A DNA stretch of 64,000 bases from Sphingopyxis granuli NBRC 100800 (lineage in GTDB: Bacteria; Pseudomonadota; Alphaproteobacteria; Sphingomonadales; Sphingomonadaceae): the NCBI RefSeq assembly GCF_001591045.1, contig NZ_BCUA01000006.1, positions 1 through 64,000 of the forward strand. The letters run 5' to 3'. Positions 12,269 to 64,000 of the stretch are shown in pieces. The stretch's first letter is position 1, and every line of letters starts with the position of its first letter. Position numbers and translations under genes: made by a program. The notes beneath the pieces are model-generated. The model did not search any database. It was not told the DNA's origin and was given only the letters and a program-made list of their open reading frames with translations.

Positions 12269-12284
12269 ACGAAAGGAAAGCGCC

Positions 12285-13285: not shown

Positions 13286-13315
13286 GCCGGATGCTCCATC
13301 CCTGTGTCATGGCCA

Positions 13316-31931: not shown

Positions 31932-31934
31932 GAC

Positions 31935-34097: not shown

Positions 34098-34108
34098 CTC
34101 ATATCTCC

Positions 34109-37145: not shown

Positions 37146-37146
37146 G

Positions 37147-39371: not shown

Positions 39372-40560
39372 CGAGCTTCTCCGTGAGGCGGCGGCCGATC
39401 TGATTGAGCATCAGGCGCACAAGCGGCTTGGTGCGGCTAATGTCGGACGGCGGAATGACCAGGTAGAGCGAGACGGGATGATCGGCTTCGGCCAAGTCGG
39501 CAATGCGCCAGTCGCAACGCGACGTGACGGCCGCGACGGTGGGGTCGCGATAGAGGCCGAGGAACGACATGGCCGTCGAGAGAACGCCCGATCGCTCATT
39601 CTCCGATTTGTTCAGCACCTCGCGCGCGGCGGACGCGACGACCGGGTGGACCTGCGGCGCTTCCTTCGTGCCGAGATGATTGGTGGTCATCATCCGGCGC
39701 AGCGTCGTCACGAACGGGCGCTGCGGATCGGACAGGAAGGTTGCGACGCGGGCGAGCGTCTTTTCTTCCTCGGCATAGAGTATGTGGAGGATCGCGCCGA
39801 CCAGCAGCGAGTGCGATGTTTTCTCCCAGTGGTTCCGACGCTCCAGCGCCCCTTCGGGATCGACCAATATGTCGGCGATGTTCTGAACGTCGCGAACCTC
39901 GTTCGCGCCCTTCCTGACCTCCAACAGCGGATTATATTTTGCCGATCGAAGGTCGGTCGGGTTGAACAGCAGGACGTGCGAAAAGCACGCGCGCCAGCCC
40001 GCGGTAAGCTGCCAGTTCTCGCCCTTTATATCGTGGACGATGGCCGAGCCGGTCCAGCTTAGCAGCGTCGGGATGACGAGGCCGACGCCTTTGCCGCTCC
40101 GCGTCGGCGCGAACGCCATGACATGCTCCGGCCCGTCGTGGCGAAGGTAGCGCTCGCGCAGACGACCAAGGAAAACACCGCGCTCGCTAAGCAGCCCGGC
40201 GCGGTCGATCTCGCCTTTTGTCGCCCAGCGCGCCGAGCCGTATGTCGTGACATGGCGCGACTGGCGCGCGCGCCATAGCGACCCGGCGATGGCGGACGCG
40301 CAGCCGAGAAAGCCGCTGGCTCCCGCGATCATCCCGGCCTTGTCGAAGACCTCCGGCGCGTAGGCCTCGTAGTGATACCACCAAGGGAATATCGCCCACG
40401 GGCGATAGACCGGCGTGTCGAACAGAATGAACCATGCCGGCCCAAGCTGCGGCTGATAACCGAGCTGCGCCGCGCACCATTGCGTCGCGGCCCAGACGCC
40501 CACGATGACGAGTGCGAAAACGACGAAAATCTGGCCTATCAGCAGCTTCGTGGGGGTCAC
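39355..40560 (-). CDS. traG: TraG/VirD4 coupling protein, N-terminal part (frameshifted)
   Basis: 401 residues: two N-terminal membrane helices ('IGQIFVVFALVIVGVWAATQ'), 'YGSARWATKGEIDRAGLL', then Walker A 'FAPTRSGKGVGLVIPTLLSW'. It ends 'IGRRLTEKLDAAQA', where family members read on into the Walker B part that is in the other frame (38556-39371). A coupling protein without Walker B would be inactive. The start is GTG 40560. The ATPase normally recruits the relaxosome to the Trb channel. Confidence 0.85.
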   Translation of the reverse strand: MTPTKLLIGQIFVVFALVIVGVWAATQWCAAQLGYQPQLGPAWFILFDTPVYRPWAIFPWWYHYEAYAPEVFDKAGMIAGASGFLGCASAIAGSLWRARQSRHVTTYGSARWATKGEIDRAGLLSERGVFLGRLRERYLRHDGPEHVMAFAPTRSGKGVGLVIPTLLSWTGSAIVHDIKGENWQLTAGWRACFSHVLLFNPTDLRSAKYNPLLEVRKGANEVRDVQNIADILVDPEGALERRNHWEKTSHSLLVGAILHILYAEEEKTLARVATFLSDPQRPFVTTLRRMMTTNHLGTKEAPQVHPVVASAAREVLNKSENERSGVLSTAMSFLGLYRDPTVAAVTSRCDWRIADLAEADHPVSLYLVIPPSDISRTKPLVRLMLNQIGRRLTEKLDAAQA

Positions 40561-44000: not shown

Positions 44001-46025
44001 TCACGAAATGCTCGGCCCGCTGCGCTGCCGCCCGAACGTCCAGCTTATGCCGCCATCGCGCATGATGCCTGACACGCTCTTGCCGATATGCCGCTCCATC
44101 ACCGGACGCCACGGAATCAGAACAAAATCGCGCGACCGCTCGACCAGGGCTTGCCGCCCGCTCGTCATATCGACGGCGCGGACCAACCCGCCCTGTATCG
44201 ACTCCCGCGGCCTCGCTTCGGCGAAGGGCTTGCCAATTTCATCCGATAGCTGGCTCGCGACGCGCAGCAGCTCGCGCCGCAGCAGGGCCGCGAGCATGTT
44301 GCGGCGATAGATGGTTCGCCCCTCCTGTGCCTCGGCCAGCCCCTCGGCAACCAGCCATTGCCGTCGCATCGCTTGCGCGGCGCGAACCTCGCTTCCGAAA
44401 CCGGCATCGCGAAGCGGCGCCGGACTATCGGCGACCAACTCCCGGTCGAGCCACGTCGCGGCCTCGGCCCCCGGCAGCTTGTCGAGCGGCACGGCCGACA
44501 GCGTTTCGACGGTGACAGGCCGGTCGCGAAGCTGGCGCGCCTCGAACGCTTCCACCTTGTCGAGATGGTCGGGAGTGATGACCCAGCTTCCGTCGGGTTC
44601 GCGCTCGACGTTTCGCATGACGCGCCGCATGGCTTCCAGACGCCGGACGTGGCTTTCCGCAAACCGTTCGCTGGCGGTCGGGTCGTGCCGCAAATGCGCG
44701 TCGATCGTGTAGCGCCCACCATTCGCGGTCGCGACCTCGGCAATCGTGCGATCGACGGGACGAACGCCGCTGCTGCTACGTGGTGCGATCTCGACAATCG
44801 CGTCTTTGGGGATCGGGCTGACCGCTTCGCCCTTGCCGATCTCGGCATAATGGGTGCGCCCGTCGATCGCCTCGACGATGACATAATGGCGATCGGCATA
44901 TTCGTCCGACAGCCCGCGTTCGACGACACGGCCGATAAGCGGGCGGGCATCGGATGCGGTCGGGTCATAAATGACCTGATCGACTATCGCGGGCGCGTTT
45001 CCGCGCGCCGCATATGCGCGCTGCATGGTGCGGATAATGTCGTCGCGCTCGCCCATGCGGCGCAGCGTGTCGGCAAGATCGGGGGCGAGCTGCCAATGCG
45101 CCGCGCCGTGCCGCGTCGCCAGCCCGAGACGTTCGAGCTTCTTGAGCCGACCCATGCGAATAGCCTGATCGAACGCGCCGCGCGCGTTGGAACTGACAAG
45201 AATATCCTTGTCGGCCTCTCGCAGCATCGCGCGGTCTATGCTGGTCAACCGCTCCTGTTCCACCTCGGCGCGAAGGCGCTGCTCGATCGCATGATCGGTG
45301 CGCGGGCCAAGGTCGAGGTCGACCAGCTCTGAGGCACGCTCGCGCAGGCCGTGGCTGATATAGTCGCGCGCGATAATCAAATCCTTGCCGCGCTCGTCCT
45401 TGCCGCGCACGATGATATGGGTGTGCGGGTGGCCGGTGTTATAGTGATCGACCGCCACCCAATCGAGTTTGGTCCCCAAATCCTCTTCGACCCGCTGCAT
45501 CAGCCGCCGGGTCAGCGGCTTGAGGTCGTCATATTCCATGCCGTCCTCGGCGCTGACGATGAAGCGGAATTGATGGCGATCGCCCTTCGCCGGTTCGAGC
45601 CAGGCATTACGGTCCACCGCGTCACCGTCGGCGCTATAGAGTTGCCCGCGTCCGCCCTCGCGGGTCGTGCCGTCGCGCTCGACGTAGCGCAGATGCGCTT
45701 TGGCAACGTCGAATCCGTTGCCGCCGAGTTTGACGGTGCGAACCTTGACGATCACGCGCCGCTGGCGAAAGGCGGCGAAGCGGTCGCGCGATGACAGGAC
45801 GAGACCGACGCCAGCGCCGCGCCCGATGCGGCTGCCGGTAAAAGCCGACTGCCGCGCGCGACCGGGAGCGCCGCCGCGCGCGAGATTGGTTGCAGCAATC
45901 ACGCGCGAGAGGAACTTGCGCGGGCGCGGCTTCCGGCCCTTGTCGCCAAGGCGGCCGAGCCGCGGTTCAAAATCGTCGTTGGTGGATATGATCGGCGCCT
46001 TCGGTGGGAGAGAAAGCCCGATCAT
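44001..46025 (-). CDS. Relaxase with HUH motif and DUF3363-type C-terminus
   Basis: A 674-residue conjugative relaxase. The metal-binding triad is in 'YNTGHPHTHIIVRGKD' (HxHxH), after 'FVSAEDGMEYDDLKPL'-type sequence, with 'ARDYISHGLRERASELV' beyond it. The C-terminal half ('WLDRELVADSPAPLRDAGFG', 'FVLIPWRPVMERHIGKSVSG') matches the DUF3363 part found in this relaxase family. It nicks oriT and pilots the strand. The basic first 75 residues are loosely structured. ATG 46025 is one possible start; the catalytic domain begins near residue 90. Confidence 0.88.
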   Translation of the reverse strand: MIGLSLPPKAPIISTNDDFEPRLGRLGDKGRKPRPRKFLSRVIAATNLARGGAPGRARQSAFTGSRIGRGAGVGLVLSSRDRFAAFRQRRVIVKVRTVKLGGNGFDVAKAHLRYVERDGTTREGGRGQLYSADGDAVDRNAWLEPAKGDRHQFRFIVSAEDGMEYDDLKPLTRRLMQRVEEDLGTKLDWVAVDHYNTGHPHTHIIVRGKDERGKDLIIARDYISHGLRERASELVDLDLGPRTDHAIEQRLRAEVEQERLTSIDRAMLREADKDILVSSNARGAFDQAIRMGRLKKLERLGLATRHGAAHWQLAPDLADTLRRMGERDDIIRTMQRAYAARGNAPAIVDQVIYDPTASDARPLIGRVVERGLSDEYADRHYVIVEAIDGRTHYAEIGKGEAVSPIPKDAIVEIAPRSSSGVRPVDRTIAEVATANGGRYTIDAHLRHDPTASERFAESHVRRLEAMRRVMRNVEREPDGSWVITPDHLDKVEAFEARQLRDRPVTVETLSAVPLDKLPGAEAATWLDRELVADSPAPLRDAGFGSEVRAAQAMRRQWLVAEGLAEAQEGRTIYRRNMLAALLRRELLRVASQLSDEIGKPFAEARPRESIQGGLVRAVDMTSGRQALVERSRDFVLIPWRPVMERHIGKSVSGIMRDGGISWTFGRQRSGPSIS

Positions 46026-46341
46026 GCGCGCGGCCCGGAGACATGAAAATCGGTGCCGCCGAATGTGGCGGAAAACCGCCGATTTTCGGCGCACCGGCAC
46101 TGTCGCCAGCATGGCGGCACTGTTTTCCTCTCCCTAAAAACGATGTGCAGACAACAGCTTAGGCATCATCCGCATAAGCGGACGGTGCCGTAGCTTTATA
46201 TCTTGCCTTCCGCGCCTTTCCTCACCGCCGGCCCCTTCGCATCACTCCTGGCCCATTCTCACGCCTCCCCGCGCGCAAAAAAGGGGAGCGACGCCACGCG
46301 GACGCCGCTCCCCAAACCTTCCTCGCCGATCGCGCGCCGGC
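46026..46341. other. Region upstream of the relaxase gene, with terminator
   Basis: No coding frame of note. It contains the terminator at 46277-46313. Being next to the relaxase start it is a reasonable place for oriT, but no nick-site motif is recognised. Confidence 0.4.
46277..46313 (-). terminator. Rho-independent terminator (minus strand)
   Basis: Arms GGGGAGCG (46283-46290) and CGCTCCCC (46306-46313), with a run of six A at 46277-46282, which is a T-run on the minus strand. It ends transcription of the ardC-parB-DUF736 unit before the relaxase gene. Confidence 0.75.
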
Positions 46342-51437: not shown

Positions 51438-53750
51438 TTAGCAAACGGCATCGATGACGGCTCGTACGATGCTCGCCGTGCCTTTTCCTAAGGGCATGAT
51501 CGGTTCGCGATCGTCCATGGCCTCCTTGATGCAATAATAAGCGGAGTGGCTGCTGCTCCGCCAAGCGAAGACGAAGAAGTCGGCATTTTTCGCAAGGCTC
51601 GCAAGCCTAGCCGTCGCCACAAGATCGGCATTGAGTATGACTTCAACACCGGGAAACATCGTCTCCAATTGGCTTTTGGCACGGCTTCCGGCCGCTTCGG
51701 TGAGAGTGTAAATACCAATAGTCTTGTCCGATAAATCGGGGAGCACGCCTTGGTCGTTCGCCTGCTCTTCAGCATCGATTGCGCCGAGCGCTTCGCGGTC
51801 GATCCCATAGTCCTGTGCGAGAATGCGGAATGCATGGCGTTCGTCCGCACGTAAGCGATGAGCAAATCCGATCGTCTTGCCGACGACGAGCAGGAAGAAT
51901 TGCTGGCGTGCATTTTGGCAATCGACCGACGGCGCAGGTGCGAGGGCCAACGCTTCTGCGACATCCAGCGACCAGCCCACATGCGCTGGCGACCCCATGC
52001 GCTCTTCGACGTCGCTCAAAGTATCGAGGAGCGATAGATAATCAGCACTCGAAACGCCGGCTTCCAGAAGCTGGCCGAGCAGTTGAGACAGCAGGGCTAG
52101 GTCGATCGACGACAGGCCATCGTCCATCGCGACAAGCATGAAGAGCGTGTTGGCGATCGGCTTGACGCTCGGCAGCATGACTCCCTCGTCGCCGAGGAAC
52201 GCAGCGTGAATCGAAGGGATTGCATTCCGCACGATCGCCGATCTGTCGCCGCCCACGTTTCCGATCCTGTCGGCGAACTGCTGCGCCCGTTCCGGGGCGC
52301 TGCGAATCGCATCCGCATCCCAGGTCACAGCCGCGTCGGCAGGCAGGGTGCTGGCTGTGCCCTCCCGTAGCCCGGCAGCCCAATCGAGCCACCCGCTGGC
52401 CGCGTCCGGGACGCTCGCCAATGCCGGCTCAACACCGGCAGGGCTCCCCAAATCCCTCTCGACCGGCAACGCGTCTGCCACCGGGACAACCTCAACCTCA
52501 ATGGATGGCGGCGAGACCTGCAAAGCCTCATATTTGGCACGGTTTGCTAACGATAATTCTTCGACAAGCTGTCCGGTTTTCTCGACCGTGGCCACGACCT
52601 TGTCGATGGCCTCCTGCGTGCGCACGAAGGAGGCACAGTGGATCAGACGGGTGATCGTCCTTTTGCTCTGCGGGAGCGCAAGATAGAGTTCAATGGCGCG
52701 ATCGAAATTACCGTCATCGAAAGCTTCGTCGGCGGCGTCGATACTCGGCGCCTCGCTCGCGGCGGAAGGGATGGAGATCAGTTCGGCAATAGTACCGGCA
52801 ACACGCGCGGAATCGGGCAGCAGCGCAGCGAGCTCGGCAATGATTTGCGGGCTGGGCTTCGGGCGGCTTCGCTCGAACAGCAGAAATGCCTTCACTGCGC
52901 GCGGCGTCCGAACGCCCCGGCGCGAAGCAAACAGCCGCGGATAACGACTGCCAATCTGTTCGACAAAGGTCGCGAGAAGTTCGTCGCTACTGCCGCTGGC
53001 TTCAGGAAGATCGAGATGTGTCCGATACAGCGCCTCGATTAGATCGGCGATAATCTGCGGCGGAAGAACCAACTCGGAGAGCGTCTTGATCAGCCAATGA
53101 TCATGAGCGATTTGCGGCCATAATCCGAGGCCGGCGCGCATCCGCACATCCAGGAAGCGCAGATTTTCTTCGTTGAGGCGCGCGCTTTGCTTCAACTCGT
53201 CCAGCAATACCTGCGCCTGAGCCTGATCCTGGACAAGCAGCGCGCGATCAAACTCCGATCGAATGGCCCCGACCGGGCGGCGTTCAATCTTCTTGCGCCG
53301 CGTCCGTCCCGCAAGGAGAGTTGCCAGCGCGCGCAGATCATTGGCGATCCGTTGGTTCGCCGCTTCGTCGGCGCCCGCAAAACGAAAGACGGGCGTACCG
53401 AAAGCGCTCCCGAGTGCCGCGGCCATCGGGTCTGCGGCGGCGGGCGAGGTTCGGTCGAAATGCTCGAACCATGCCCGCCCGAACCATGCGTTCAGCAGGC
53501 GCTCGAGTTCCCCGGTCCGCTCTTGATCGCGGGCCGCAGCATACCAGCCGGTTATTTTACCGTCCCGAACGAACGGAAGAATTATTGGGGCAATCTGCTC
53601 ATAGTCGCCGAGCAGTCTGAGCCATGGATCGACAGATTCGGCAATCCCGGACGGGATGCTCCCAGCCGAGAGGGTTACCCAGTCGAGGCCGTTCGGCGCC
53701 GCAAAGAAGCGCGAGAGCCAAGGGGCATGGTCAGGGCCGACCTCAGGCAT
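51438..53750 (-). CDS. dpdD: DpdD-like protein of the 7-deazaguanine DNA (Dpd) system
   Basis: A 770-residue soluble protein. The C-terminal part 'KTIGIYTLTEAAGSRAKSQL', 'FPGVEVILNADLVATARL' and 'NADFFVFAWRSSSHSAYYCI' is the most distinctive. The middle is helical and TPR-like ('AFDDGNFDRAIELYLALPQS'). I call it DpdD from its size, C-terminus and place after the dpdK gene. ATG 53750 overlaps dpdK by 8 bases. DpdD is counted among the restriction-side proteins; its reaction is unknown. Confidence 0.7.
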   Translation of the reverse strand: MPEVGPDHAPWLSRFFAAPNGLDWVTLSAGSIPSGIAESVDPWLRLLGDYEQIAPIILPFVRDGKITGWYAAARDQERTGELERLLNAWFGRAWFEHFDRTSPAAADPMAAALGSAFGTPVFRFAGADEAANQRIANDLRALATLLAGRTRRKKIERRPVGAIRSEFDRALLVQDQAQAQVLLDELKQSARLNEENLRFLDVRMRAGLGLWPQIAHDHWLIKTLSELVLPPQIIADLIEALYRTHLDLPEASGSSDELLATFVEQIGSRYPRLFASRRGVRTPRAVKAFLLFERSRPKPSPQIIAELAALLPDSARVAGTIAELISIPSAASEAPSIDAADEAFDDGNFDRAIELYLALPQSKRTITRLIHCASFVRTQEAIDKVVATVEKTGQLVEELSLANRAKYEALQVSPPSIEVEVVPVADALPVERDLGSPAGVEPALASVPDAASGWLDWAAGLREGTASTLPADAAVTWDADAIRSAPERAQQFADRIGNVGGDRSAIVRNAIPSIHAAFLGDEGVMLPSVKPIANTLFMLVAMDDGLSSIDLALLSQLLGQLLEAGVSSADYLSLLDTLSDVEERMGSPAHVGWSLDVAEALALAPAPSVDCQNARQQFFLLVVGKTIGFAHRLRADERHAFRILAQDYGIDREALGAIDAEEQANDQGVLPDLSDKTIGIYTLTEAAGSRAKSQLETMFPGVEVILNADLVATARLASLAKNADFFVFAWRSSSHSAYYCIKEAMDDREPIMPLGKGTASIVRAVIDAVC

Positions 53751-54282
53751 CACCGGCCAAATATGATTCAAAGGCGATCCGTGCCTGGGCGACGGTCTGC
53801 CGCGTCGTATCGTAGACGACGTGTTCGTCGTTAAGTTCAAGCCCGTTATAAGTGATGTTCATCGATCCGGTCAGCAATCCGCGGGAAAATAGCAAACCCT
53901 TCGTATGAAGGAGTTGACGGCGAACAATCACGAGCTTGTCTCCGACGCCCGCTTCCTGCGCACCTGTCTCGAGCGCCGTCAGCAGCGAGTCATTATGCCC
54001 GTCAAAACTCGTCGCGATGCCGAGCGGCGTTCCCCGGGACATGAGATAAACCAACAGTTCAACCAAGCGAACCTCGCGTTCACCCCAATCGGGATTAAGC
54101 GCGGAGAAGCCTGCCGCTCGATTGTCGAGAAGGATGACGTTGCTGATCCAGGGGCTGACCAGCCAGGCGCGCTCGTCGCCCGGCGACAGGAGCTCGGACA
54201 ACAGCATCTGCTGAAGCAACTCGCGGATCAGATTGTGGCTGGTGCTCGCACTCTTGAAAATGCGGCGCGTGGCAAAACTCAT
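53743..54282 (-). CDS. dpdK: DpdK, phospholipase D-like protein
   Basis: A 179-residue protein with one PLD motif: 'RRQLLHTKGLLFSRG' then 'GSMNITYNGLELNDEHVVYD' (HxK...GS.N). The first half has 'WLVSPWISNVILLD', the usual first strand of the fold. A protein with one HKD motif works as a dimer, probably as a nuclease. ATG 54282 overlaps the dpdJ stop by four bases. Confidence 0.8.
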   Translation of the reverse strand: MSFATRRIFKSASTSHNLIRELLQQMLLSELLSPGDERAWLVSPWISNVILLDNRAAGFSALNPDWGEREVRLVELLVYLMSRGTPLGIATSFDGHNDSLLTALETGAQEAGVGDKLVIVRRQLLHTKGLLFSRGLLTGSMNITYNGLELNDEHVVYDTTRQTVAQARIAFESYLAGDA

Positions 54283-57200
54283 TGCAGCGCCTCCGCAATG
54301 TCGATGTCGGCCTCGAGATTCCCGCCAACGCGGCGGATTGCCTGGGTCCGTGCAAATACCGAGAGGTAATCCGCTTCGACAGGGTTGGTCGCGAGGAAGG
54401 TAAGCGCTTCCGCCATCCGGTCGCTTTGCGCCAGTGCGCAAACGAGGGTAGCGGCGCCGGTCCGTGCCAATTGATCGAGGCATCGCTCGCGCCAGGTCGG
54501 GTTATCCAGGTCAATGGTTGCCGTGCCCTCGGGAAGGAAGGCCCGAACAAGCAATGTTTCGGGCGCCGGCAAATCGCTGAATGTCGAGTAAAGGGCGAGG
54601 CCCGCCTGGCGAATGTAGGAACCCCGCGGCCAAAGCAGACCATATATAACGCTGAACCGCCATTGGTCGGGGTTGATCGTAGGCGTATCGATACCCGCAG
54701 CACCAAGCGCTTGATCGAGATCACTGTTTCGCGAGAGCCTATAGGCGATCACGCGCGCGTCAAGTTCGACGCCAAGTCGGGCTTCCTCTCCGTCCCAGAG
54801 CAGCAAAGCATCACGCAGGAAACGATCGCTTTCAGCGCTCGACCCCGGTCGCAAAACGCGATTGCTGAGCGCCACCATAAAGGCGTGCGACGTCACATAG
54901 CCCTGTTCCGCAATCAGGTGGCGAAGCGCGGTAAAGGCGCGGTGGGTGGCTTCGGCACCCGACGCTCTTCGCATCGCCTGGAGCGCCTCGGCGAAAGGAT
55001 CCTCCGGGGCGGCCAAAACAGCATCGTTTACGAAGCGCTTCAACTGGAAATCGCTCAGCGCAAAGTCGTTGTCGCGAAGGGCTGAGCTCATCAATGCGTA
55101 GAAACGGCGCGGATCCTCGGCATATACGCGCTGAATCTCCTCGATGTGGCCATTCCCGCCGGGCGACATCTCGCTAATCCACAATTCGCTCGCCTGATCC
55201 TGGGATATATCTTCGCCGTCGCGCGGCCCCGCGTGGATGTCGACCACCAGTTCGTCGGTATCTACCTCCGGGCAGAGGCTCTCAATCGCATGAATCAAGG
55301 CGGCGGCGATCGTCGCTGTGAAGCGTTCGCGCAACCAGCCTTCCGATTCCTCCCCCAGCGGTTCGTAAAGGCCATGTCCCAATGCCAGAAGGTTGCGTAC
55401 GACGTCGGGGTTCGCGAGATAGGCCGCAAGATCCTGGCGGAGGCGGTCTTGGGCGTTCCCTTGCGCGCTGGCGTCGTCGACGATTTGCGACTGGAAGAGA
55501 AAATTGAGGGTCTGGTCGAGATCGAGATCGGCGCTTCCCCCGGCGAGATTTGCCGCCGCTTGGCGGAGGTCGATCGATTTAGCGACCGCCTCATTGGTCA
55601 AGGTTGTCAGAAGCAATTGCGCAAGCCAATCGCGAGCAAATATATTATCGATCCCATCGAGCAGCGGACCGTGCCGCGCTTGGTGATAGAAATAGGCTGT
55701 GCGCATCGCTCGCGCGAGTTCGTCGACGCGACCATCGAGATTTTCCCATATGCGGTCAGGCAACGCCAAACGCATACAAAGGGCATCGACCGCGATTGTA
55801 AATCCAAGTCCGACCCGTTCGCCTCCAGACTCGAAGTAAAATTCCTTAACTGCCGAAGTTCCGTCCTGGAAAAGGATATTCGCATCACTGCCGAGTGCGA
55901 CGCGCCGCGTTTCGATCGGACAATGGCCTTGGTGTGTGAAAAATTCCATGGACCGGACATGGTCGGACCATCCGTTTCCAGCAGGTGGCGCAAAAGCCAG
56001 TCCGTGCGTGCGCGCGATCAATTGGTTCCGCCACCGCAGCCGCGAATTCGAACTGTCTAGGACGTTGGATGGCGGAAGTGACACGCGAAAACTCCGGGGG
56101 CGAAGCACTTGCACTTCGGCAACACCACCGCCGCTCTCGATAGGCCAGCGACCGAGCACTTCGCCCGATGCAAAATCGCCAACGGAAACGGCCTGTTCCC
56201 GCATCGCATCGAGTTCGGGTGCAATCCAATGTCGTTCGCGTTCATGGCGCAGACCGAAGCGCCGGGAAACCCGGCCGGGAGAGAATTCGCGCAGCGCTTG
56301 GCCGATCGGCATCACCATATTTTCGGGCTCGGCAGAACCGGGCGACGGCGGAAGCGTGATTTGTACCTCAGGCAAATTCAGACTCGTGAACAAATTTGCC
56401 GGCGCGAATTCGGGTAGCGGAGCATTGTTCAGCCAATAATCGCCACCGACTTCGCCGGACCAGCGCCAGTTGGTCTCGAGCCGGCGTACAGCGGTCGGCA
56501 ACACTTCGGTGAGCAAGGGGCGAGGTTGCTCCCAAAGAAGCAGTTGAACATCCTCGATCTTTAACCGCAGCGATTTGGCGAGAAACTCGGCATAACGATC
56601 TTGCTCGGCGGGCTGCACGATGATCCGGCGGAGAGTCTGTGCCAGTTGGGTCTGCCGATTTCTATCGGTCGCGCGGTCGCTTGGCTTGGCCAAATCGTGC
56701 CAGACGCTGTGTCGGTTCGTCGTATCCGCTGCCGCGAGATAGTCGAGGGTCGCATATACCGCTTGAATGCGCTGTATGTAGCGATTTGTGGTCGGAAGCG
56801 ACCGCACCGGCAGTTCGGGATCGAAAAGTAAATCATAGCCCTGATAGGCGATGCGATCGCGGCCATAATCCGAGAGGATTGCGACCGTCCAGGGCCGCAT
56901 CCTTCGCAAACGTCCCGCTCGCCCTTTGCGTTGCAGGAACTGGGCGACGTCACGCGGTGCCTTGTGCTGGATGACCGCTCCGACCCGAGGGTCGTTAAAG
57001 CCCACCTCGAGCGCGGCCGTGGCCACAATAATGTCGAGATTATTGCCGACGCCTGGATCCATCGACATGACCCGGCCCACCGATTTTCGATCTTGCTGCT
57101 GGAGCGTATGACCGATCCGGGTCACTGCATCCCAGTCCTGACCGTCGAGCTTGCGGCTCTCGACCGTAGAGGGAAACCGCAAGGTCGCGAGGCCCCCCGT

Positions 57201-58829
57201 CGGCTTGCGACGCATATCCGGAGCGCCGCGTCGGTCCCGCCCTTCCGCATCGAGCATCGCAAAATACATACGATTGGTCACATCGATGTCGTCGGTAAAC
57301 AGGAAGAGGCGCTCACCAACAACGCCTTCGCTTCTACGGCTTGCCGGGTCATCGAGAATCCGGGACAAGAGCATTGCCGTCTGGATCGAAGTCGAGAGCA
57401 AGGCCGTCCGTGAGACAGGGTCGCCGCGCAGGGCGAGCATATATTCGGCGCCTTCGGAAATCATGTCAGCGCGCGATGGCGTGACCTCGGCGCACGCGGC
57501 CTCAGAAAGCCCGGTGAGACGGGCGAAGAAACGCGCGCCATCTTTCAGCGTCGCAGAAAGTCCGACGAAAGATACGGGGCGCCTGAGCAACCAGCGCCAA
57601 CGGCGGATAAGATAGGCCACCTGCGCACCGGAAGTGCCAGCATAAGTGTGTACTTCGTCGAGTAGCATCAGTTCGGCAGGGCGTGCAGCACGGTCACCCA
57701 CACCAAAAAGATGCCGATAGCGACCATCGCCGATCCGCTGGTTCAACATCTCGGTGGTCGTGAAAAGAATGTCCGGACTTTCCCGCACAAGCCTTTCACG
57801 CGTCAGAATGACCTCATCGCTCTCGATCGTCGCGTCACAGGTCAGGCAGCAGAGACGCTCGCGTTTCTCTGCCCGATCGGCGTCGAGCCAGACCATGTCG
57901 CCCAGACAATGCTCCGTCGGGCACCGGATAAAATCGCACCGCAACCCCCCGCTGATCTGTTGCCATCCGGTCTTGGTATTATGGGCGAATACCGCGCTAT
58001 GCGGCGTCGGACCGAAAAATGTGCCGATCAGGATCTTGCGTCGACCCTTTGCGCTCAAGCTCGCGTCCAGACGGCGCGCCTGCGAATATACCTCGGCGAA
58101 TTGATCCTTGAGCAATTCGTTGCGCGGATAAAGAGCCAGGACTTTCACCCAGCGCACTGTAGCCGGATCTGTTTCGATATGCGCCGCAACACGCGCCAGC
58201 GCGGGCAGATAGAAAGCAAGCGTCTTGCCGCTACCGGTGCCGGCGCTTACCAATGTCCCGGAAGATCGGCCGTTGAAACCGGCGAGGATCCGCGCTGTCG
58301 CCTTGACCTGAAAATCGGCGAGCGCAAAATCGGAGCCGTAGCTGCTGACCAGCGCAGCAAGTGCGCCGCGAACAGCCTTGTTATCGGTCGCTTCATTAAC
58401 AACGCGCACCGCATCAGCGGCCAGCTTGTCTCGTTTCGGATAACTTCGGCGGCGCCACAAGAAGCGGAAATCGGCAACGAGCGTCGGGGCGGTCTGCCAA
58501 AGGATCGGTCCGGCATGTTTCGGAAAAAGTTGGCGCAAACGAAAGCTCAACCGTACGGCCTCGGCCATTCTAGACCTGTAGCGCGCCTCATTATCGTCGC
58601 CGACATTCAGGATTAGTGCGCGCGCGATTAGTGCCGCGATAACTTCGCCGGCCCCAAGATATGAAACATTCCGGCCGACAACCGGGTCGTCGAGAAATTC
58701 GTCGATGATGCCGTGAAGCTCCGCAGGAGCAACATGGCTATCGACCAATCCCCAACTCAACAGGCGCGCTTCCATTTGCTCGACAGCGTCGAGCACCGCC
58801 ATTAGCAAGCCTTCGTCACCCTCCATCAC
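54279..58829 (-). CDS. dpdJ: DpdJ, large superfamily 2 helicase
   Basis: A 1516-residue helicase. Motif I is 'VSAGTGSGKTLAFYLPALAR', motif II 'LMLLDEVHTYAGTSGAQ', motif III 'FVGLSATLKDG', and motif VI 'DVAQFLQRKGRAGRLRRM'. A four-Cys cluster ('CPTEHC', 'CCLTC') between motifs I and II may bind zinc. The long C-terminal half has no recognised domain. A helicase of this size beside a PLD protein and the DpdH ATPase fits DpdJ; it also resembles DrmA of DISARM, which I consider less likely. It overlaps dpdI by four bases. Confidence 0.8.
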   Translation of the reverse strand: MMEGDEGLLMAVLDAVEQMEARLLSWGLVDSHVAPAELHGIIDEFLDDPVVGRNVSYLGAGEVIAALIARALILNVGDDNEARYRSRMAEAVRLSFRLRQLFPKHAGPILWQTAPTLVADFRFLWRRRSYPKRDKLAADAVRVVNEATDNKAVRGALAALVSSYGSDFALADFQVKATARILAGFNGRSSGTLVSAGTGSGKTLAFYLPALARVAAHIETDPATVRWVKVLALYPRNELLKDQFAEVYSQARRLDASLSAKGRRKILIGTFFGPTPHSAVFAHNTKTGWQQISGGLRCDFIRCPTEHCLGDMVWLDADRAEKRERLCCLTCDATIESDEVILTRERLVRESPDILFTTTEMLNQRIGDGRYRHLFGVGDRAARPAELMLLDEVHTYAGTSGAQVAYLIRRWRWLLRRPVSFVGLSATLKDGARFFARLTGLSEAACAEVTPSRADMISEGAEYMLALRGDPVSRTALLSTSIQTAMLLSRILDDPASRRSEGVVGERLFLFTDDIDVTNRMYFAMLDAEGRDRRGAPDMRRKPTGGLATLRFPSTVESRKLDGQDWDAVTRIGHTLQQQDRKSVGRVMSMDPGVGNNLDIIVATAALEVGFNDPRVGAVIQHKAPRDVAQFLQRKGRAGRLRRMRPWTVAILSDYGRDRIAYQGYDLLFDPELPVRSLPTTNRYIQRIQAVYATLDYLAAADTTNRHSVWHDLAKPSDRATDRNRQTQLAQTLRRIIVQPAEQDRYAEFLAKSLRLKIEDVQLLLWEQPRPLLTEVLPTAVRRLETNWRWSGEVGGDYWLNNAPLPEFAPANLFTSLNLPEVQITLPPSPGSAEPENMVMPIGQALREFSPGRVSRRFGLRHERERHWIAPELDAMREQAVSVGDFASGEVLGRWPIESGGGVAEVQVLRPRSFRVSLPPSNVLDSSNSRLRWRNQLIARTHGLAFAPPAGNGWSDHVRSMEFFTHQGHCPIETRRVALGSDANILFQDGTSAVKEFYFESGGERVGLGFTIAVDALCMRLALPDRIWENLDGRVDELARAMRTAYFYHQARHGPLLDGIDNIFARDWLAQLLLTTLTNEAVAKSIDLRQAAANLAGGSADLDLDQTLNFLFQSQIVDDASAQGNAQDRLRQDLAAYLANPDVVRNLLALGHGLYEPLGEESEGWLRERFTATIAAALIHAIESLCPEVDTDELVVDIHAGPRDGEDISQDQASELWISEMSPGGNGHIEEIQRVYAEDPRRFYALMSSALRDNDFALSDFQLKRFVNDAVLAAPEDPFAEALQAMRRASGAEATHRAFTALRHLIAEQGYVTSHAFMVALSNRVLRPGSSAESDRFLRDALLLWDGEEARLGVELDARVIAYRLSRNSDLDQALGAAGIDTPTINPDQWRFSVIYGLLWPRGSYIRQAGLALYSTFSDLPAPETLLVRAFLPEGTATIDLDNPTWRERCLDQLARTGAATLVCALAQSDRMAEALTFLATNPVEADYLSVFARTQAIRRVGGNLEADIDIAEALQ

Positions 58830-59542
58830 GCGGCGACAATGCGATAGGAATCGAAGGCGTCATTGTCCTTGAGCCACGCGATGACGCCGGGCGTCAGCAG
58901 CGTCAGCGCAGCACCTCTCGCTTGGACGGCTTCTAGGAACTTCTTCACATCGTCCGGCACTGCAAAATCGAATTCGCCGGCGATGGTCTTCAAATCGGAG
59001 GCCAGTTGGAGCACGGCGACGATCTCCGCTGTGCTCGAAGGCATCGTCTCAAAGGCCATACGGAACGCTTGATGCTTGCTCTCATAACGAGTGAGCGCGC
59101 TGTTGTTCTGATCGGTTCCGGCAATCCGACTGCGAACTACTGCAGGCGCGTCACCAGTAAAAATGACGCCGCGATACGCCTTCCACGCTACCTTGGCATC
59201 CTTAGCAAGCTCGGTTGCGGCGGCTACGAGGTCGCGTGTGAGCGTCGTCCATGACTTGCCGACCTTGAGCGTGCCCGATCTCGGATCCTGCACGAATTTG
59301 TCTCGCAAAGCAGCGGCGCGCGCGCGCGCTGCGGAGAGCGACGCGGGAGTTTCGGTCACTACGCCCGCCTTGGCGAGAACGCGGGACTGCACCAAACTCC
59401 GTTCGAGCTCCTCGACATCCTCGGCGAGTTCACGGCGAAGGTCGGTGAGCAATGCGGTTTCCTGGACGTTGGAACCCATCGCATCGAGCGTTTCGAGCTG
59501 CTCGCGCAGCGCCGCGGCACGGAGTGGAAGAGCGGCACTCAT
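58826..59542 (-). CDS. dpdI: DpdI-like protein
   Basis: A 238-residue helical, coiled-coil-rich protein: 'AALREQLETLDAMGSNVQE', 'REVAEDVEELERSLVQSRVL'-type heptads near residues 30-55 and a C-terminal 'PDDVKKFLEAVQARGAALTL'. No catalytic motif. It is named from its position between the DpdH ATPase and DpdJ helicase, and overlaps both genes by four bases. An inter-subunit or partner role is likely. Confidence 0.6.
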   Translation of the reverse strand: MSAALPLRAAALREQLETLDAMGSNVQETALLTDLRRELAEDVEELERSLVQSRVLAKAGVVTETPASLSAARARAAALRDKFVQDPRSGTLKVGKSWTTLTRDLVAAATELAKDAKVAWKAYRGVIFTGDAPAVVRSRIAGTDQNNSALTRYESKHQAFRMAFETMPSSTAEIVAVLQLASDLKTIAGEFDFAVPDDVKKFLEAVQARGAALTLLTPGVIAWLKDNDAFDSYRIVAA

Positions 59543-62500
59543 TGTGTATCTCCAAGGGTTGTCGTATCCGCAGCAACGCGATCGAATAGTGCGATGATGT
59601 CTGTTGCGACAATCATCGGATCCGACTGGCGCCGCGCTTCCATCTGTTTTTCGACGCGTGGCGTCCCGAGCGACACAAGCGCCTCGGTATCCTTCAGGAA
59701 ACCGAGAGTGCGTTGGATAAGACCGAGATCGATGACACCGAGCGCGTTCAACAATCTAGGTAATTGGTCACGCTCCGCTTCGCTGACCATTGCAGCCGCA
59801 TTGACTAGTTCGGCATAAGGACTCGTCTGAAACTCGGTGAGATTCCGCCCGAACCGCGCGACATCGAAATTGGCTTGGCTCGGCCAGCATTGAGTTTTCT
59901 GCAAGAGATGGACAATGGTTTTAAGGTCGGCAACGAATGCATTTTTGTCGAGCTTCTCGTCGTCTAGGAAGTCGCCGACCTCGTCCCGGAATTGCCGCAA
60001 TAACGCGATCACCGGTTGCACGCGGGCCCAGATGCGGTCTTCGCTTAGCGAAGGCAGAAACATCCGAATATCTTCGGAGACAGCGTCCGGTAGCGTTGCG
60101 CGTTCTTCGGGTGGCAACTGCAGCGCATCATAGATACGAACGAGATCGATAGCAAAAGGCGTACGACCATTGCCCTGATAGCTTGCCGAGCGGTCGCGCA
60201 GAGCGTCCTGCAAGAGTTTGCGAATATCACGTCCGCTGCTTCCATTGAGTGCATGCGTGCGCAATTGATCCCATTGCGGTTCGACACTCGAGCCATCGAA
60301 CGACGCGGGTTGGTCAAAAAGCGCGGCCAGCATCGCCTGCGGTCCCGCGATGCGAACGGGCGGTTGCATACCGGCGATCCGGGCCTGCGTAAGCAACGCA
60401 TTGCCAAGGAAATATCCCGCAGCCTTCGCGTCGGCTATCAGCATCGGTTCCAGTTGCCGGCGAAGGTCATCGACGATTTGCATCGCGGCGACATAATCGT
60501 CATCACCTTCGGGATAGTCCCAACCGCTCCCATGATGCTGGTAGCGCAACGCACCGAACATACCCTGCCGCATTGTCCCATCTTCGTCGCGATAATCGGT
60601 ACAGACCGTTAATTCGCGCCCGCCTGTAGGATTATTGCTGGCACCGGCGATAGCGATCCAGCGGCCGCTGACCTCGACTTCAGGAATACGAAGTCCCGAT
60701 CCGTCGATGGACTTTTGCAACAGCTCAGCCAATGCATTGCGGATCGCACGCGCATCGGCCTGAATGAGTGGCTCGCCTGTCGCCCAGCGGTCGAGTTTTC
60801 CGACCCATGCCGCGATTTTCGGGTCTACCGGGTCTTCCCCAGAAGCTTGATCCACCACTGCAGTCCCGCTGCTTGTAGTCGGCGTATCTGGAGTCGCGGA
60901 CGGAGGCGTCTCGACCTTCTTGACGAATTTGACGTTCGTAAGATCTTCCGGCGTCGGTACGCCGAAGGTACGAAAAACGAGAGGCTGGACGTGCGCCAGC
61001 GTTTTCGCATCAGGAGCATTACCGCCCCACATCACGAGTGTGCTCTGCAGGCGCCGCTTTTCCGGATCGGGGATGCTCAATTGCCGGACGAGATTGGCCA
61101 AATATCCGTTGGGCTGGAGCCCGTGATATGCGGCCGGCGGAAATTCGCCCCGTATATAGCTATCGCGATCGAGCAACGTATTTCTCAGTATCTCGTTGAT
61201 CACGCGACGCGGGTTGAATGTGAGTTTTGCGTTTTCGAGAAGATGATGCTCGACAAGGCGCTCGATGGCGGCGCGATTGAACGGGAACAGGGGAAACCCG
61301 GCCTCGGACTGGCCGAATGCTTCAAGAGCGGCCGCCTCCTCCTCTGATCGGGCATCGTCATGCCAGATCGGCAGCCAACCGGCCTGTGCGTGCGCCGATC
61401 GATTCCGGCTGAAGCGTTCTTTCAATCCCTCCTCGCCCCAGCGGGCGGCATTGAGATAGGCTCCGACCATCTCGACCACGGCCGCCTTCGTCTCGGCCTC
61501 GCTCTGCGGCGCGTTTCCGATCATCCATACGCGCTGCGCGCGCGTCAAAATGGTTTCGCGTGAGGTGAGATAACCATCGGTTAGTGCCAGCGCTGTCCGC
61601 ATCGTGGCATAGACCTGCTTTCCATCGCGCGTGCCTTCTTGAATGCACACATTCAGCAGGGCCTCCTGGATACCGGAGAGAGCCGCGAAGTCTTCGACGA
61701 GGAGTACCAATTCCTTGCCGTCTTCCAAAAGCGACTCGCGGACCCCCAGAATGATATCCTGCAGCGTCAGCCCGCCGCTGCTCTGCTCGAGCCGGAACAC
61801 ATGACTGATAGCGCGGTCCACCACCGAATTGAGAAGCTTCGCAATGGGCTCGCGCCGGGTGGCATCGGCGACAGCAATTTGCGAGAGATAATAGTTGCGG
61901 ACGGGAAAGGCAGCCTCCGAAATATCGCAGCTTTCGGGAACGAGAAGATCATCGCCGAAAAATTGCGTATCCGTTTCGCCGCCGATGCTTTCTTCATCGC
62001 GCCCTTTGATTGCGCGGGAAATGATCCGATTGAAGACGGTGTCTGCATAATGTTCATGAAGAACAGCGTCCCGAAAAAGCTTGGGCAGTTGCTCGGCATG
62101 CCCGATGAGCGAACGAAGTTCTGCGCCCCGACTGGCATCCTCCGAAACTTGCGCACGCATTTCCTTCGCGCGGTCTGCCAAGGCATTCTGTAGTTCGGCG
62201 ATGAATCTGACGATGATCTGCGAGGCGTTCACTTCAGCGACCGCCTTGCTCAGCTCATCGCGCGGTTTGGCGTAACGGGGGTTGTTCTTGAGGGGCTCCA
62301 GGATGAGTTCGACGACCTTGCGCAAACTCGCACTCTTCGGAATTCGAATAACGAGCAAATCTTTATAACGTTTGGACCGTTGCAACTGCGCATCGAGCCA
62401 GCGGATGACGTGCGATTTTCCGACGCCCGATGGTCCGGTGATTGGGCACAAGATATAGCCCGCCGGGACATCCTCGCTAAGGAAAGCATCCAGCAATTGT

Positions 62501-62658
62501 TTCTCGGAAACCACCGTCTCGCGGTTTGTGACCGCAGCGCGTGCGACAAGCGGAGTTGGCTGATGCACGGCGAGGAGAACCGAGACATCGGCTGTCTCCG
62601 CCTCATTCTTGACGCACGCGTTCACGGCATCGGCGCTAGGCCAATAAGCTTCGAGCAT
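59539..62658 (-). CDS. dpdH: DpdH, large P-loop ATPase
   Basis: A 1039-residue ATPase. Walker A is 'ILCPITGPSGVGKSHVIRWL', and 'GKELVLLVEDFAALSGIQEA' supplies a Walker B-like acidic strand. The C-terminal 500 residues are mostly helical. It is DpdH by size, ATPase type and position. ATG 62658 ('MLEAYWPSADAVNA') shares one base with the dpdG stop (TAATG); a reading from 62706 lies inside dpdG. Probably an energy-using core of the restriction step. Confidence 0.8.
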   Translation of the reverse strand: MLEAYWPSADAVNACVKNEAETADVSVLLAVHQPTPLVARAAVTNRETVVSEKQLLDAFLSEDVPAGYILCPITGPSGVGKSHVIRWLDAQLQRSKRYKDLLVIRIPKSASLRKVVELILEPLKNNPRYAKPRDELSKAVAEVNASQIIVRFIAELQNALADRAKEMRAQVSEDASRGAELRSLIGHAEQLPKLFRDAVLHEHYADTVFNRIISRAIKGRDEESIGGETDTQFFGDDLLVPESCDISEAAFPVRNYYLSQIAVADATRREPIAKLLNSVVDRAISHVFRLEQSSGGLTLQDIILGVRESLLEDGKELVLLVEDFAALSGIQEALLNVCIQEGTRDGKQVYATMRTALALTDGYLTSRETILTRAQRVWMIGNAPQSEAETKAAVVEMVGAYLNAARWGEEGLKERFSRNRSAHAQAGWLPIWHDDARSEEEAAALEAFGQSEAGFPLFPFNRAAIERLVEHHLLENAKLTFNPRRVINEILRNTLLDRDSYIRGEFPPAAYHGLQPNGYLANLVRQLSIPDPEKRRLQSTLVMWGGNAPDAKTLAHVQPLVFRTFGVPTPEDLTNVKFVKKVETPPSATPDTPTTSSGTAVVDQASGEDPVDPKIAAWVGKLDRWATGEPLIQADARAIRNALAELLQKSIDGSGLRIPEVEVSGRWIAIAGASNNPTGGRELTVCTDYRDEDGTMRQGMFGALRYQHHGSGWDYPEGDDDYVAAMQIVDDLRRQLEPMLIADAKAAGYFLGNALLTQARIAGMQPPVRIAGPQAMLAALFDQPASFDGSSVEPQWDQLRTHALNGSSGRDIRKLLQDALRDRSASYQGNGRTPFAIDLVRIYDALQLPPEERATLPDAVSEDIRMFLPSLSEDRIWARVQPVIALLRQFRDEVGDFLDDEKLDKNAFVADLKTIVHLLQKTQCWPSQANFDVARFGRNLTEFQTSPYAELVNAAAMVSEAERDQLPRLLNALGVIDLGLIQRTLGFLKDTEALVSLGTPRVEKQMEARRQSDPMIVATDIIALFDRVAADTTTLGDTQ

Positions 62659-63557
62659 TACCGGACCTTCTTCGCGACAAAATTGATATGGCTGACGTCG
62701 CGCCATCGCTTCCCGGCGCGCCCCGTCAGCGAGATTCCTTCGCCGGCGTCGCTTCTTTGCTCGAGTTTGAGCGATCCTTCGCGATCAAGGCGCTGCAGAG
62801 CGCGAGACAATGATGTCGAAACGCTGCCTTCATTTGGTCTTGGCCAAATCCCGTCCTTCAGTGCCGCTTCCACCTCCCGACGATATTTGCCCCCATCAAG
62901 GATTGGGACGGCTTCAGACAAGCGACCGACGAATTCACCCGCGAGCAAAATTTTGGCGCTTCCGAAAATATCAGGCAGCGTATCCCGAACGGCTTCGGTC
63001 GGGTCGATGTTCCAACTGCCTGCATCGCGCGCGAATCCGAGATAGGGCATCCAGGCCCGCAACCCGTTCCACCGCGTATCATTTTGTATGATCGTCGTGG
63101 TTCTGGGATCGGCGATCTGGCGCGCTGCGAGGCTTTCCCATCCAGCTACAGTAGAGGGCATGGCGTACACATCCTGTGCGAGCATCCACGCCGCCCCCCT
63201 AGAGAAATCAGCGCTTTGGGCACCTTCCGCGTCCCAGAAGCGGGCATTATTTTCCTCTTTCAATACGAGCCTCCGCGCCACATCGGGCAATCGCGCCTCG
63301 GCGACATCGGGTTTTGTGCCGAGGATGGCGCGATAAGGCTCCGCGATAGCGAAAGTATCTTTACCGACTTCGAAAAGCCCGAGCGAAGTCCAGCGAGTCA
63401 ACGTGCGCCCCAAATGCCCTGCATCGAACGAATCTATCATGCTCCCGCAAGCGGCCAGAAGCTGCTCGGTGTCGCGCGGCGAAAAGCGGACGGCCGCTCT
63501 CACCAGGATAATCAGAACATTGTAAAGCCCGTCGCTCGGACGGTTCAGGATGGTCAC
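62658..63557 (-). CDS. dpdG: DpdG-like protein
   Basis: A 299-residue protein. It begins 'MTILNRPSDGLYNVLIILVR' and has winged-helix-like features, 'LGRTLTRWTSLGLFEVG', and an end 'LSRALQRLDREGSLKLEQRS'. No catalytic motif is seen. It is named DpdG from its place before dpdH and its size. It overlaps both neighbours. Confidence 0.65.
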   Translation of the reverse strand: MTILNRPSDGLYNVLIILVRAAVRFSPRDTEQLLAACGSMIDSFDAGHLGRTLTRWTSLGLFEVGKDTFAIAEPYRAILGTKPDVAEARLPDVARRLVLKEENNARFWDAEGAQSADFSRGAAWMLAQDVYAMPSTVAGWESLAARQIADPRTTTIIQNDTRWNGLRAWMPYLGFARDAGSWNIDPTEAVRDTLPDIFGSAKILLAGEFVGRLSEAVPILDGGKYRREVEAALKDGIWPRPNEGSVSTSLSRALQRLDREGSLKLEQRSDAGEGISLTGRAGKRWRDVSHINFVAKKVR

Positions 63558-64000
63558 GATCGGGCTCCGCGCAGAAACTGCTCTTGGGTCAAAATATTGG
63601 ATCCGGTATCGCCTAGGTGCCTCAGAGGATGATCGGGATCCGAGGCCGTGCGCGACGCAAGAACTACGTGGACCGGTTTGCGAAGGTCAAGCAGAGCGCG
63701 ATCGATGTCGAGCGTGTCGAAAATAGTTGCCCGCGGCAATTGGTACATCGATCCGCACCGCCTTTCTTCCGCGATGTCCTGCAGAAAGATCATGCCGCCG
63801 GGAACGCGTTGATGCAGCGTCGCGTAACGGGGTTCCTTTGCGCGAAAACTCGCCGGAAGGCAGAGTTCGCGAATACCGAAGGTCGAGACCAAAGCTTCGA
63901 CAACGGGGTAGATCGATTTCGCGTCCAAGGGCCCCGGAAACAGAAGATAGACGGGTGACGAAAGGTCGAGATGCCTGAACCGCTGGGTCCAGGTCGCCGC
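63554..64000 (-). CDS. Partial gene at window edge, probably dpdF
   Basis: The reading is open to the right edge and gives about 148 C-terminal residues, starting '..TWTQRFRHLDLSSPVYLL' and including 'IRELCLPASFRAKEPRYATL' and 'DIDRALLDLRKPVHVVLASR', ending 'LTQEQFLRGARS'. No helicase motif is in this part. Overlap with dpdG by four bases and the F-G-H order known from Dpd islands suggest the RecQ-like DpdF. Its upstream part is outside the window. Confidence 0.55.
   Translation of the reverse strand, partial: AATWTQRFRHLDLSSPVYLLFPGPLDAKSIYPVVEALVSTFGIRELCLPASFRAKEPRYATLHQRVPGGMIFLQDIAEERRCGSMYQLPRATIFDTLDIDRALLDLRKPVHVVLASRTASDPDHPLRHLGDTGSNILTQEQFLRGARS

What the first reader, a model, noticed from the sequence alone, without database searches (positions are those of the whole stretch)
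51438..64000. Dpd (7-deazaguanine) restriction operon, F(partial)-G-H-I-J-K-D, beside an ICE
Seven overlapping minus-strand genes match the size and order of the restriction half of the Dpd system, which marks DNA with preQ0/ADG-type bases and restricts unmarked DNA. The gene overlaps (4, 1, 4, 4, 4 and 8 bases) argue for a single regulated unit. The modification genes dpdA, dpdB and dpdC are not in the window and should lie to the right. If they are absent there, a restriction-only operon would be unusual.
Basis: partly seen in the sequence, partly recalled or inferred. Interest (0 to 1): 0.75.

Follow-up and report, generated by a model that had tools for sequence, protein, structure and literature searches.

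The report
Complete Dpd DNA-marking defence on ICE
A mobile element in an alphaproteobacterium carries a complete system that appears to stamp its own DNA with an altered guanine and destroy unstamped DNA, and relatives show that the stamping genes travel with different destroying genes.

Summary
The seven genes at window 51438-64000 are dpdD, K, J, I, H, G and the 3' end of dpdF. Six meet NCBIfam cut-offs; DpdI scores below its own (119.7 against 150 bits). The feared restriction-only operon does not exist: past the window edge follow dpdE, queC, queD, queE, dpdB2, dpdA, dpdB1 and dpdC, a whole Dpd island (51438-75540, 15 genes, one strand, one 58-base gap). It lies inside, not beside, a conjugative element: trb genes and a relaxase on one side, an integrase beside tRNA-Gly on the other. 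The left end was not found and traG is frameshifted.

This is a new member of a known kind. Two features stand out. dpdB is paired: 27 of 29 loci have two diverged copies flanking dpdA. And the 6.1-kb cassette dpdC-B1-A-B2-queE-D-C precedes different restriction modules: two named genomes share it at 92% DNA identity, ending 26 bases before the queC stop, with no match outside; one continues with window-type dpdE-F-G-H, the other with a PD-(D/E)XK-type nuclease and an SF1-DpdJ helicase. No function was tested.

The parts
51438..53750 (-). dpdD, 770 aa, last gene of the island; predicted helical-repeat protein with a C-terminal alpha/beta domain (low-confidence model)
   Evidence: NF041061 538.6 bits, cut-off 300; model mean pLDDT 58.2
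53743..54282 (-). dpdK, 179 aa, PLD-type nuclease (one HxK...GSxN half-site; motif name recalled)
   Evidence: NF041068 192.3 bits, cut-off 100; PF13091 29.7 bits, cut-off 27; sequence
54279..58829 (-). dpdJ, 1516 aa SF2 helicase, Walker A and DEVH box
   Evidence: NF041067 1801.2 bits, cut-off 800; motifs
58826..59542 (-). dpdI, 238 aa, diverged
   Evidence: NF041066 119.7 bits, BELOW its cut-off of 150; PADLOC DpdI 35.6 bits; place in the operon
59539..62658 (-). dpdH, 1039 aa AAA-type ATPase, Walker A GPSGVGKS
   Evidence: NF041065 791.7 bits, cut-off 450; PF13401; motif
62658..63557 (-). dpdG, 299 aa, function unknown
   Evidence: NF041064 295.5 bits, cut-off 80
63554..64000 (-). dpdF, 3' end; the gene runs to C6:66136 outside the window (860 aa, RecQ-like helicase). 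The island goes on outside with dpdE, queC, queD, queE, dpdB2, dpdA, dpdB1, dpdC to C6:75540
   Evidence: NF041063 876.5 bits, cut-off 550; contig
29099..38439 (-). conjugation genes of the element (TrbI, CagX/TrbG, VirB8/TrbF, TrbL, TrbE, VirB11-type ATPase)
   Evidence: Pfam
38556..40560 (-). coupling protein TraG, split by a frameshift into two overlapping ORFs
   Evidence: PF02534 positions 1-295 in one ORF and 300-458 in the other; three frames shown
44001..46112 (-). relaxase with DUF3363
   Evidence: PF11843 472.4 bits; PF03432 Relaxase 22.3 bits, below its cut-off of 24.6

Best explanation
This is a complete, probably working Dpd restriction-modification island carried as cargo by an integrative conjugative element. 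Host FolE and island QueD, QueE and QueC make preQ0. DpdA, acting with two distinct DpdB partners, swaps guanine in DNA for preQ0, and DpdC converts it to ADG. The helicase/ATPase set DpdE, F, H and J with DpdG, I and D inspects DNA, and the PLD nuclease DpdK cuts what lacks the mark. The 15 genes may be one transcription unit with the marking genes first, so that after transfer the recipient would be marked before restriction builds up. Gene identities, order and motif integrity are shown here; chemistry, restriction, transcription and timing are inferred from the family.
For: All eleven Dpd families found: A, B (two copies), D, E, F, G, H, J, K above NCBIfam cut-offs, C by PADLOC (366 bits), I below cut-off. 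DpdA aligns over residues 1-419 with PDB 7ui4, a DNA-guanine transglycosylase, 299.6 bits, and keeps GDCGAF, SFDTTSPL and CSCAICR. Walker A in E, F, H, J and VDGQQR in both DpdBs. No internal stops in 15 genes; all neighbours overlap but queC/dpdE, 58 bases apart. Host folE: 2 matches over the cut-off. A published dpd cluster restricted unmodified plasmid over 1,000-fold (PMC5567051, passage).
Against: No DNA chemistry, transcription or restriction data. DpdI is below its cut-off. DpdD has no relative by sequence among solved structures and its fold search gave nothing meaningful. The one promoter-like match in the queC/dpdE stretch (1 found, shuffles mean 0.3) would let restriction be transcribed apart, and none was found upstream of dpdC. 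[quoted passage not shown]
Confidence: 0.85

Rival explanations
1. The island serves the element more than the cell: it keeps the ICE in place, because loss of the marking genes would expose the chromosome to leftover restriction, and it excludes rival plasmids and ICEs.
For: Cargo position between conjugation genes and integrase. Trb, VirB8 or relaxase matches lie in the fetched flanks of 13 of 28 other loci. Sporadic distribution: DpdA in 9 of 397 family genomes, own genome included, in 8 of 96 genera.
Against: No background rate was computed for conjugation genes near random loci, and several loci have short flanks. The two readings are not exclusive. Some cassettes lie on plasmids.
Confidence: 0.3
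2. The mark mainly shields the element's DNA from other restriction systems of new hosts; the restriction half is secondary or silent.
For: 7-Deazaguanine marks protect phage DNA from restriction (PMC6884629, title and start of abstract in the listing; one passage). The cassette is kept while the restriction half is exchanged.
Against: The restriction half here is intact: no internal stops, helicase and nuclease motifs kept. Restriction genes are recognisable in at least 24 of 29 loci compared.
Confidence: 0.15
3. DISARM or another helicase-PLD defence system, not Dpd.
For: PADLOC lists DrmA, DrmD, DruE and BrxH matches for the helicases.
Against: Those are shared helicase domains with far lower scores: DrmA 51.7 bits against DpdJ 1634.4; DrmD 122.7 against DpdE 857.8; DrmC 18.5 against DpdK 168.3. 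dpdA, B and C are next door.
Confidence: 0.01

Closest known systems
[quoted passage not shown]
   Same: Same eleven gene families; DpdA aligns over 419 residues with the solved DNA-guanine transglycosylase 7ui4, which a passage of PMC12137116 names as the Montevideo DpdA.
   Different: Here dpdB is duplicated around dpdA, queE-D-C sit between marking and restriction genes, and the island is cargo of an ICE at tRNA-Gly; the Montevideo cluster integrates near tRNA-Leu (PMC6159554 passage). The Montevideo gene layout itself was not compared here.
dpd islands with extra dpdB copies in the GATOR-GC survey (PMC11888242)
   Same: The survey counted 801 additional dpdB copies, 146 gene compositions and varying dpdD-K (section 37 read).
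   Different: That section does not describe a conserved dpdB1-dpdA-dpdB2 pair, nor near-identical marking cassettes joined to different restriction modules.
Dpd variant with a PD-(D/E)XK-type nuclease and an SF1-DpdJ protein (here called R3; e.g. L012, L016, and Skermanella rosea plasmid pSR-1, L054)
   Same: Same marking cassette in L012 and L016; dpdB-dpdA-dpdB-queE-queD in L054, where an IS110 gene follows queD. Keeps DpdJ, DpdH and weakly DpdG.
   Different: A nuclease of 752-771 aa instead of PLD DpdK; no dpdD, E, I or K match at 1e-5 in the 36-41 kb fetched around two such islands, G069 and G349. PMC5567051 mentions a Cas4-like PD-D/EXK nuclease near tgt genes, data not shown (passage).
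DISARM
   Same: Helicases and a PLD-type protein.
   Different: Drm models score far below Dpd models for the helicases and the PLD protein.

Membership tests
Dpd system | DpdA, DNA-guanine transglycosylase | tested here: met
   NF041059 554.8 bits, cut-off 200; PDB 7ui4 299.6 bits
Dpd system | DpdB with DGQ[QH]R motif | tested here: met
   two copies, 456.7 and 373.9 bits, cut-off 300; VDGQQR in both
Dpd system | DpdC | tested here: met
   PADLOC PDLC02815 366 bits; no NCBIfam match at 0.001; PF21818 23.6 bits, below its cut-off of 30
Dpd system | Restriction genes dpdD-dpdK | tested here: met
   seven of eight above NCBIfam cut-off; DpdI below its cut-off, 119.7 against 150
Dpd system | preQ0 supply | tested here: met
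   queC and queE in the island over an NCBIfam cut-off; queD by Pfam PTPS 112.8 bits (cut-off 22.4) but below NCBIfam cut-offs; two folE and a second queC elsewhere in the genome
Dpd system | dPreQ0 or dADG in the DNA | not testable with these tools
   needs mass spectrometry
Dpd system | Restriction of unmodified DNA | not testable with these tools
   needs transformation assays
DISARM | Drm proteins as best matches | tested here: not met
   Dpd models score far higher for the helicases and the PLD protein
Integrative conjugative element | Type IV secretion, coupling protein, relaxase | tested here: met
   Pfam; the coupling protein gene is frameshifted, so transfer may be lost
Integrative conjugative element | Integrase at a tRNA gene | tested here: met
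   integrase ORF C6:87633-88988, tRNA-Gly(TCC) C6:89152-89225
Integrative conjugative element | Direct repeats at both ends | tested here: inconclusive
   no second copy of the tRNA 3' end found in the contig, the window or the draft genome; the draft has 181 contigs, so the left end may be missing

The most novel reading that the evidence does not exclude
In alphaproteobacteria the self-mark is made by a portable 6.1-kb cassette (dpdC-B1-A-B2-queE-D-C, behind a conserved upstream element, with a DpdB1/DpdB2 pair that probably works as a heteromer), while the machinery that reads the mark is exchangeable: at least two distant dpdE-K sets, and one with a Cas4/AddB-like nuclease and an SF1-DpdJ helicase, all policing absence of the same mark. 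Self-marking and non-self killing would then evolve as separate parts joined at the end of queC.
Probability: 0.5. Interest if true: 0.68.

Novelty: new member of a known kind. Interest (0 to 1): 0.47.

Why it matters
It supplies a complete Dpd island in an ICE, so the question of how a restriction system enters an unmarked cell without killing it can be asked on a natural element. The relatives make an open question testable: which part of Dpd restriction recognises the missing mark.

Tried and rejected
Restriction-only operon: rejected, the marking genes are next door. DISARM: rejected on scores. Left ICE end: a 13-mer search of the contig, a 25-mer pattern with up to 2 mismatches in the draft genome, a 21-mer with up to 3 mismatches in the window and a short-word comparison of two flanks gave no convincing repeat; the last found five 10-base matches, two of them copies of one word from the tRNA at 28499 and 28533, which I judged chance without a shuffled control. 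DpdD structure: mean pLDDT 58.2 from 3 sequences; the one match under 1e-3 has TM 0.07-0.10 and identifies nothing. R3 nuclease structure: mean pLDDT 50.0 from 6 sequences, no match under 1e-3; AddAB and MGME1 are among the weak ones, as are unrelated folds. The nuclease call therefore rests on Pfam 24.1 bits (cut-off 22) in L012, none in L026, weak Cas4 hits in L026, and invariant motif residues. AU tests of module clades did not finish and were not rerun. Promoter scans and Rfam (no match) added nothing firm. The 2TM-HAD pair downstream of queC in relatives was not resolved: its PycTM similarity is weak and it stands beside a VUT-family gene in two plasmids.
Full report
Observation. The window is bases 1-64000 of a 93,595-base contig, C6, of a draft genome of 4.26 Mb in 181 contigs. 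Contig and window coordinates are therefore the same. Best-supported starts, chosen where the family profile begins, give dpdD 770, dpdK 179, dpdJ 1516, dpdI 238, dpdH 1039, dpdG 299 residues.

Identity. Seven window proteins were scanned with PADLOC, Pfam and NCBIfam. NCBIfam equivalogs: DpdD 538.6 bits (cut-off 300), DpdK 192.3 (100), DpdJ 1801.2 (800), DpdH 791.7 (450), DpdG 295.5 (80), DpdI 119.7 (150, so not met). The 148-residue dpdF fragment alone matched nothing; the whole gene, read from the adjoining contig, scores 876.5 (550).

The rest of the island. To the right lie dpdE 66133-69357 (922.7 bits, cut-off 500), queC 69416-70150, queD 70126-70563, queE 70500-71132, dpdB2 71129-72217, dpdA 72180-73511 (554.8, cut-off 200), dpdB1 73508-74620 and dpdC 74617-75540 (all minus strand). 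QueD is over the Pfam PTPS cut-off but below the NCBIfam ones; its likeliest start is about 63 bases into the ORF listed. DpdC is recognised by PADLOC (366 bits) but by no NCBIfam model at 0.001. Fifteen genes, no internal stops, every neighbour overlapping except queC/dpdE, which are 58 bases apart. The genome has two folE matches and a second queC over the cut-off elsewhere. A restriction-only operon is ruled out.

The element. Left of the island are TrbI, CagX, VirB8, TrbL, TrbE and a VirB11-type ATPase, a coupling protein split by a frameshift, a DUF3363 relaxase and a ParB-domain protein. Right of it are a lytic transglycosylase, a RovC/DUF2285-type protein, a LuxI-type synthase, a TonB receptor, an integrase ORF at 87633-88988 and tRNA-Gly(TCC) at 89152-89225. 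So the island sits inside an integrated conjugative element. Its left end is not resolved. Of ten ORFs scanned at 1.5-25.4 kb eight match ordinary metabolic or transport families and two match nothing, and a catalase follows, so the left third of the window looks chromosomal. Whether the frameshift in traG is real or a draft error cannot be told.

Spread. With DpdA as query, 9 of 397 family genomes match at 1e-60, the own genome included, in 8 of 96 genera; none of the 10 other same-genus genomes shown matches. A scan of genome contigs by peptide patterns, which finds close relatives only, gave 23 loci, 22 at 78-87% identity and one at 53%, whose names are those of sphingomonads and other alphaproteobacteria (classing recalled). 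Twenty-five plasmid records match, 17 over at least 80% of the query.

Paired DpdB. The two DpdBs of the island are 32% identical. Both copies are present in 27 of 29 loci; L025 has only a short weak hit for B1 and L032 lacks B2. In 28 B1 and 28 B2 sequences all carry DGQ[QH]R, and 17 positions are fixed to different residues in the two ('fixed' allows one exception per set; L025 B1 and L032 B2 left out by hand). Three of four plasmid regions opened show the same B-A-B order; the fourth has no annotation. The pair is therefore old and both members are kept; a heteromer is my inference. [quoted passage not shown] Extra dpdB copies as such are published (801 copies, PMC11888242 section 37).

A portable marking cassette. 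In 20 of 23 named loci the order dpdC-B1-A-B2-queE-D-C is the same. What follows queC differs. I labelled 24 of 29 loci: R1, window-type dpdE-F... (7); R2, the same gene families at 31-33% DpdE identity to the window (5); R3, a 752-771-residue nuclease followed by an SF1-DpdJ protein (8, one of them, L030, seen only by the nuclease's first 67 residues); R4, dpdJ-K-D on the opposite strand (2); R5, a dpdF-like gene without dpdE (2). Five were left out as unclear or truncated: G199, G038, L029, L032, L033. Many loci end before the module does, so most R1, R2 and R5 labels rest on the first genes; G386 (R1) and G193, the same record as L017 (R2), were seen through to dpdD.

Exchange rather than common descent. 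On a tree of DpdB1+DpdA+DpdB2+QueE (29 rows, 1383 columns) the five labels need 11 changes where 4 is the least; shuffled labels need 13.4 on average and 13 of 200 shuffles do as well. Taken singly, R1 needs 5 changes (88 of 500 shuffles as low), R2 3 (18 of 500), R3 6 (158 of 500), so the labels are hardly clustered. Well-supported branches alone force at least 5 changes for R1, 3 for R2 and 4 for R3; 8 of 26 inner branches are unresolved and the AU tests did not finish. The clearest pair is L014 (R1) and L016 (R3): 91.9% DNA identity over 6132 columns, 7949-14067 in both, and no other match at 1e-10 in 21.3 kb. L013 (R2) and L023 (R3) share 84.2% over the same stretch, L019 (R1) and L017 (R2) 80.0% over 6167 columns. 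The control pair with one module, L014 and G386, stays alike at 95.4% over 21,219 columns through both ends. The ends lie near the dpdC start (about 60 bases before the dpdC match in L019/L017) and, in the first two pairs, 26 bases before the queC stop. For 12 loci with dpdE, DpdA and DpdE identities are unrelated (Spearman 0.06, p 0.62, over 66 non-independent pairs): L019 and L017 have DpdA 96% but DpdE 32%; conversely L023 and L027 have DpdA 82% but R3 nuclease 97%. The window's own cassette stops matching the R3 locus L012 44 bases before its queC stop, but goes on matching the R1 locus G386 into dpdE.

The R3 set. A Skermanella plasmid shows more of it: a 771-residue protein without PADLOC match, a 2113-residue protein matching a long DpdJ model end to end (2291.2 bits), then convergent genes for an unknown 232-residue protein, a DpdH (1056.9 bits), a weak DpdG (19.6 bits) and an annotated helicase, cut by the stretch end. 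Two other R3 islands, G349 and G069, have dpdF-like and, in G349, dpdH-like matches on the opposite strand and no dpdD, E, I or K match. Six nuclease sequences keep D-x-K, QxxxY, an upstream E and four Cys, as I recall from Cas4 and AddB (motif names recalled). Pfam PDDEXK_1 is over cut-off in L012 (24.1, cut-off 22) and absent in L026, which has weak PADLOC Cas4 hits. The predicted structure did not settle it. PMC5567051 mentions a Cas4-like PD-D/EXK nuclease near tgt genes, data not shown (passage).

Upstream element. A two-part motif, GCATTTATTG and CATTWAATGTRGC, starts 34-35 bases apart in most loci, the second part 40-73 bases before the start of the dpdC match. 22 of 29 loci come within 2 mismatches of CATTWAATGTGGC; in 100 shuffles the mean is 0.29, the most 2. 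Near-copies inflate the count; after leaving out six, 17 loci with up to 3 mismatches remain. L031, L033, L025, L011, G199 and G038 have 4 or more mismatches. In the own genome a pattern for the pair hits once, C6:75605-75648, minus strand. In pairs such as L014/L016 it lies outside the shared cassette stretch, so I read it as a regulatory site; the binding protein is unknown.

Mechanism. As in the best explanation. Shown: gene identities, order, motif integrity, conserved pair, exchange of modules. Taken from papers: DpdA and DpdB insert preQ0, DpdC makes dADG, dpd clusters restrict unmodified DNA (PMC11888242 section 37; PMC12839542 and PMC5567051 passages). Inferred: all of it for this strain, DpdK as the cutting subunit, single transcription and delayed restriction.

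Literature limits. Searches. The founding papers and the 2024 review (PMC4801273, PMC6207457, PMC10164549, PMC10966956) are not held, so I cannot say that module exchange or the DpdB pair is unpublished; in the section and passages I read it is not described.

Verdict. The window's system is a new member of a known kind. What lifts it above routine is the comparison it led to.

Noticed in passing
window 38556-40560: traG coupling-protein gene split by a frameshift into two ORFs covering profile positions 1-295 and 300-458; draft error or inactivation not told apart.
   Followed up: partly
C6:75605-75648 (outside the window, minus strand; L002:13605-13648): Two-part AT-rich motif upstream of dpdC, conserved among otherwise unalike upstream regions and found once in the own genome.
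   Followed up: partly
L012:14125-21326, L016, L023, L026, L027, L028, L054:27086-40678: Alternative Dpd restriction set: PD-(D/E)XK-type nuclease of 752-771 aa (no PADLOC match in L012 and L054) plus an SF1-DpdJ protein, with convergent DpdH and weakly DpdG-like genes in L054.
   Followed up: partly
L011:14009-15926, L015:14090-15915, L026:14090-15882, L052:24657-26313, L053:24678-26367: A pair of genes after queC: a protein with weak PycTM/2TM similarity and a HAD hydrolase, in two plasmids beside a VUT-family gene (preQ0 transporter type, recalled); not seen in the window's island. G349 has such a pair next to a second queC-like stretch.
   Followed up: partly
C6:77835-80392 (outside the window): RovC/DUF2285-type protein and a LuxI-type autoinducer synthase between dpdC and the integrase; relatives of both also lie near dpdC in L031. 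The element may be under quorum control.
   Followed up: no
L011, L016, L027: Relatives of the element's transglycosylase and relaxase (and ParB in L011 and L016) lie upstream of dpdC, while in the window the relaxase lies on the dpdD side: the cassette sits at different places in related elements.
   Followed up: partly
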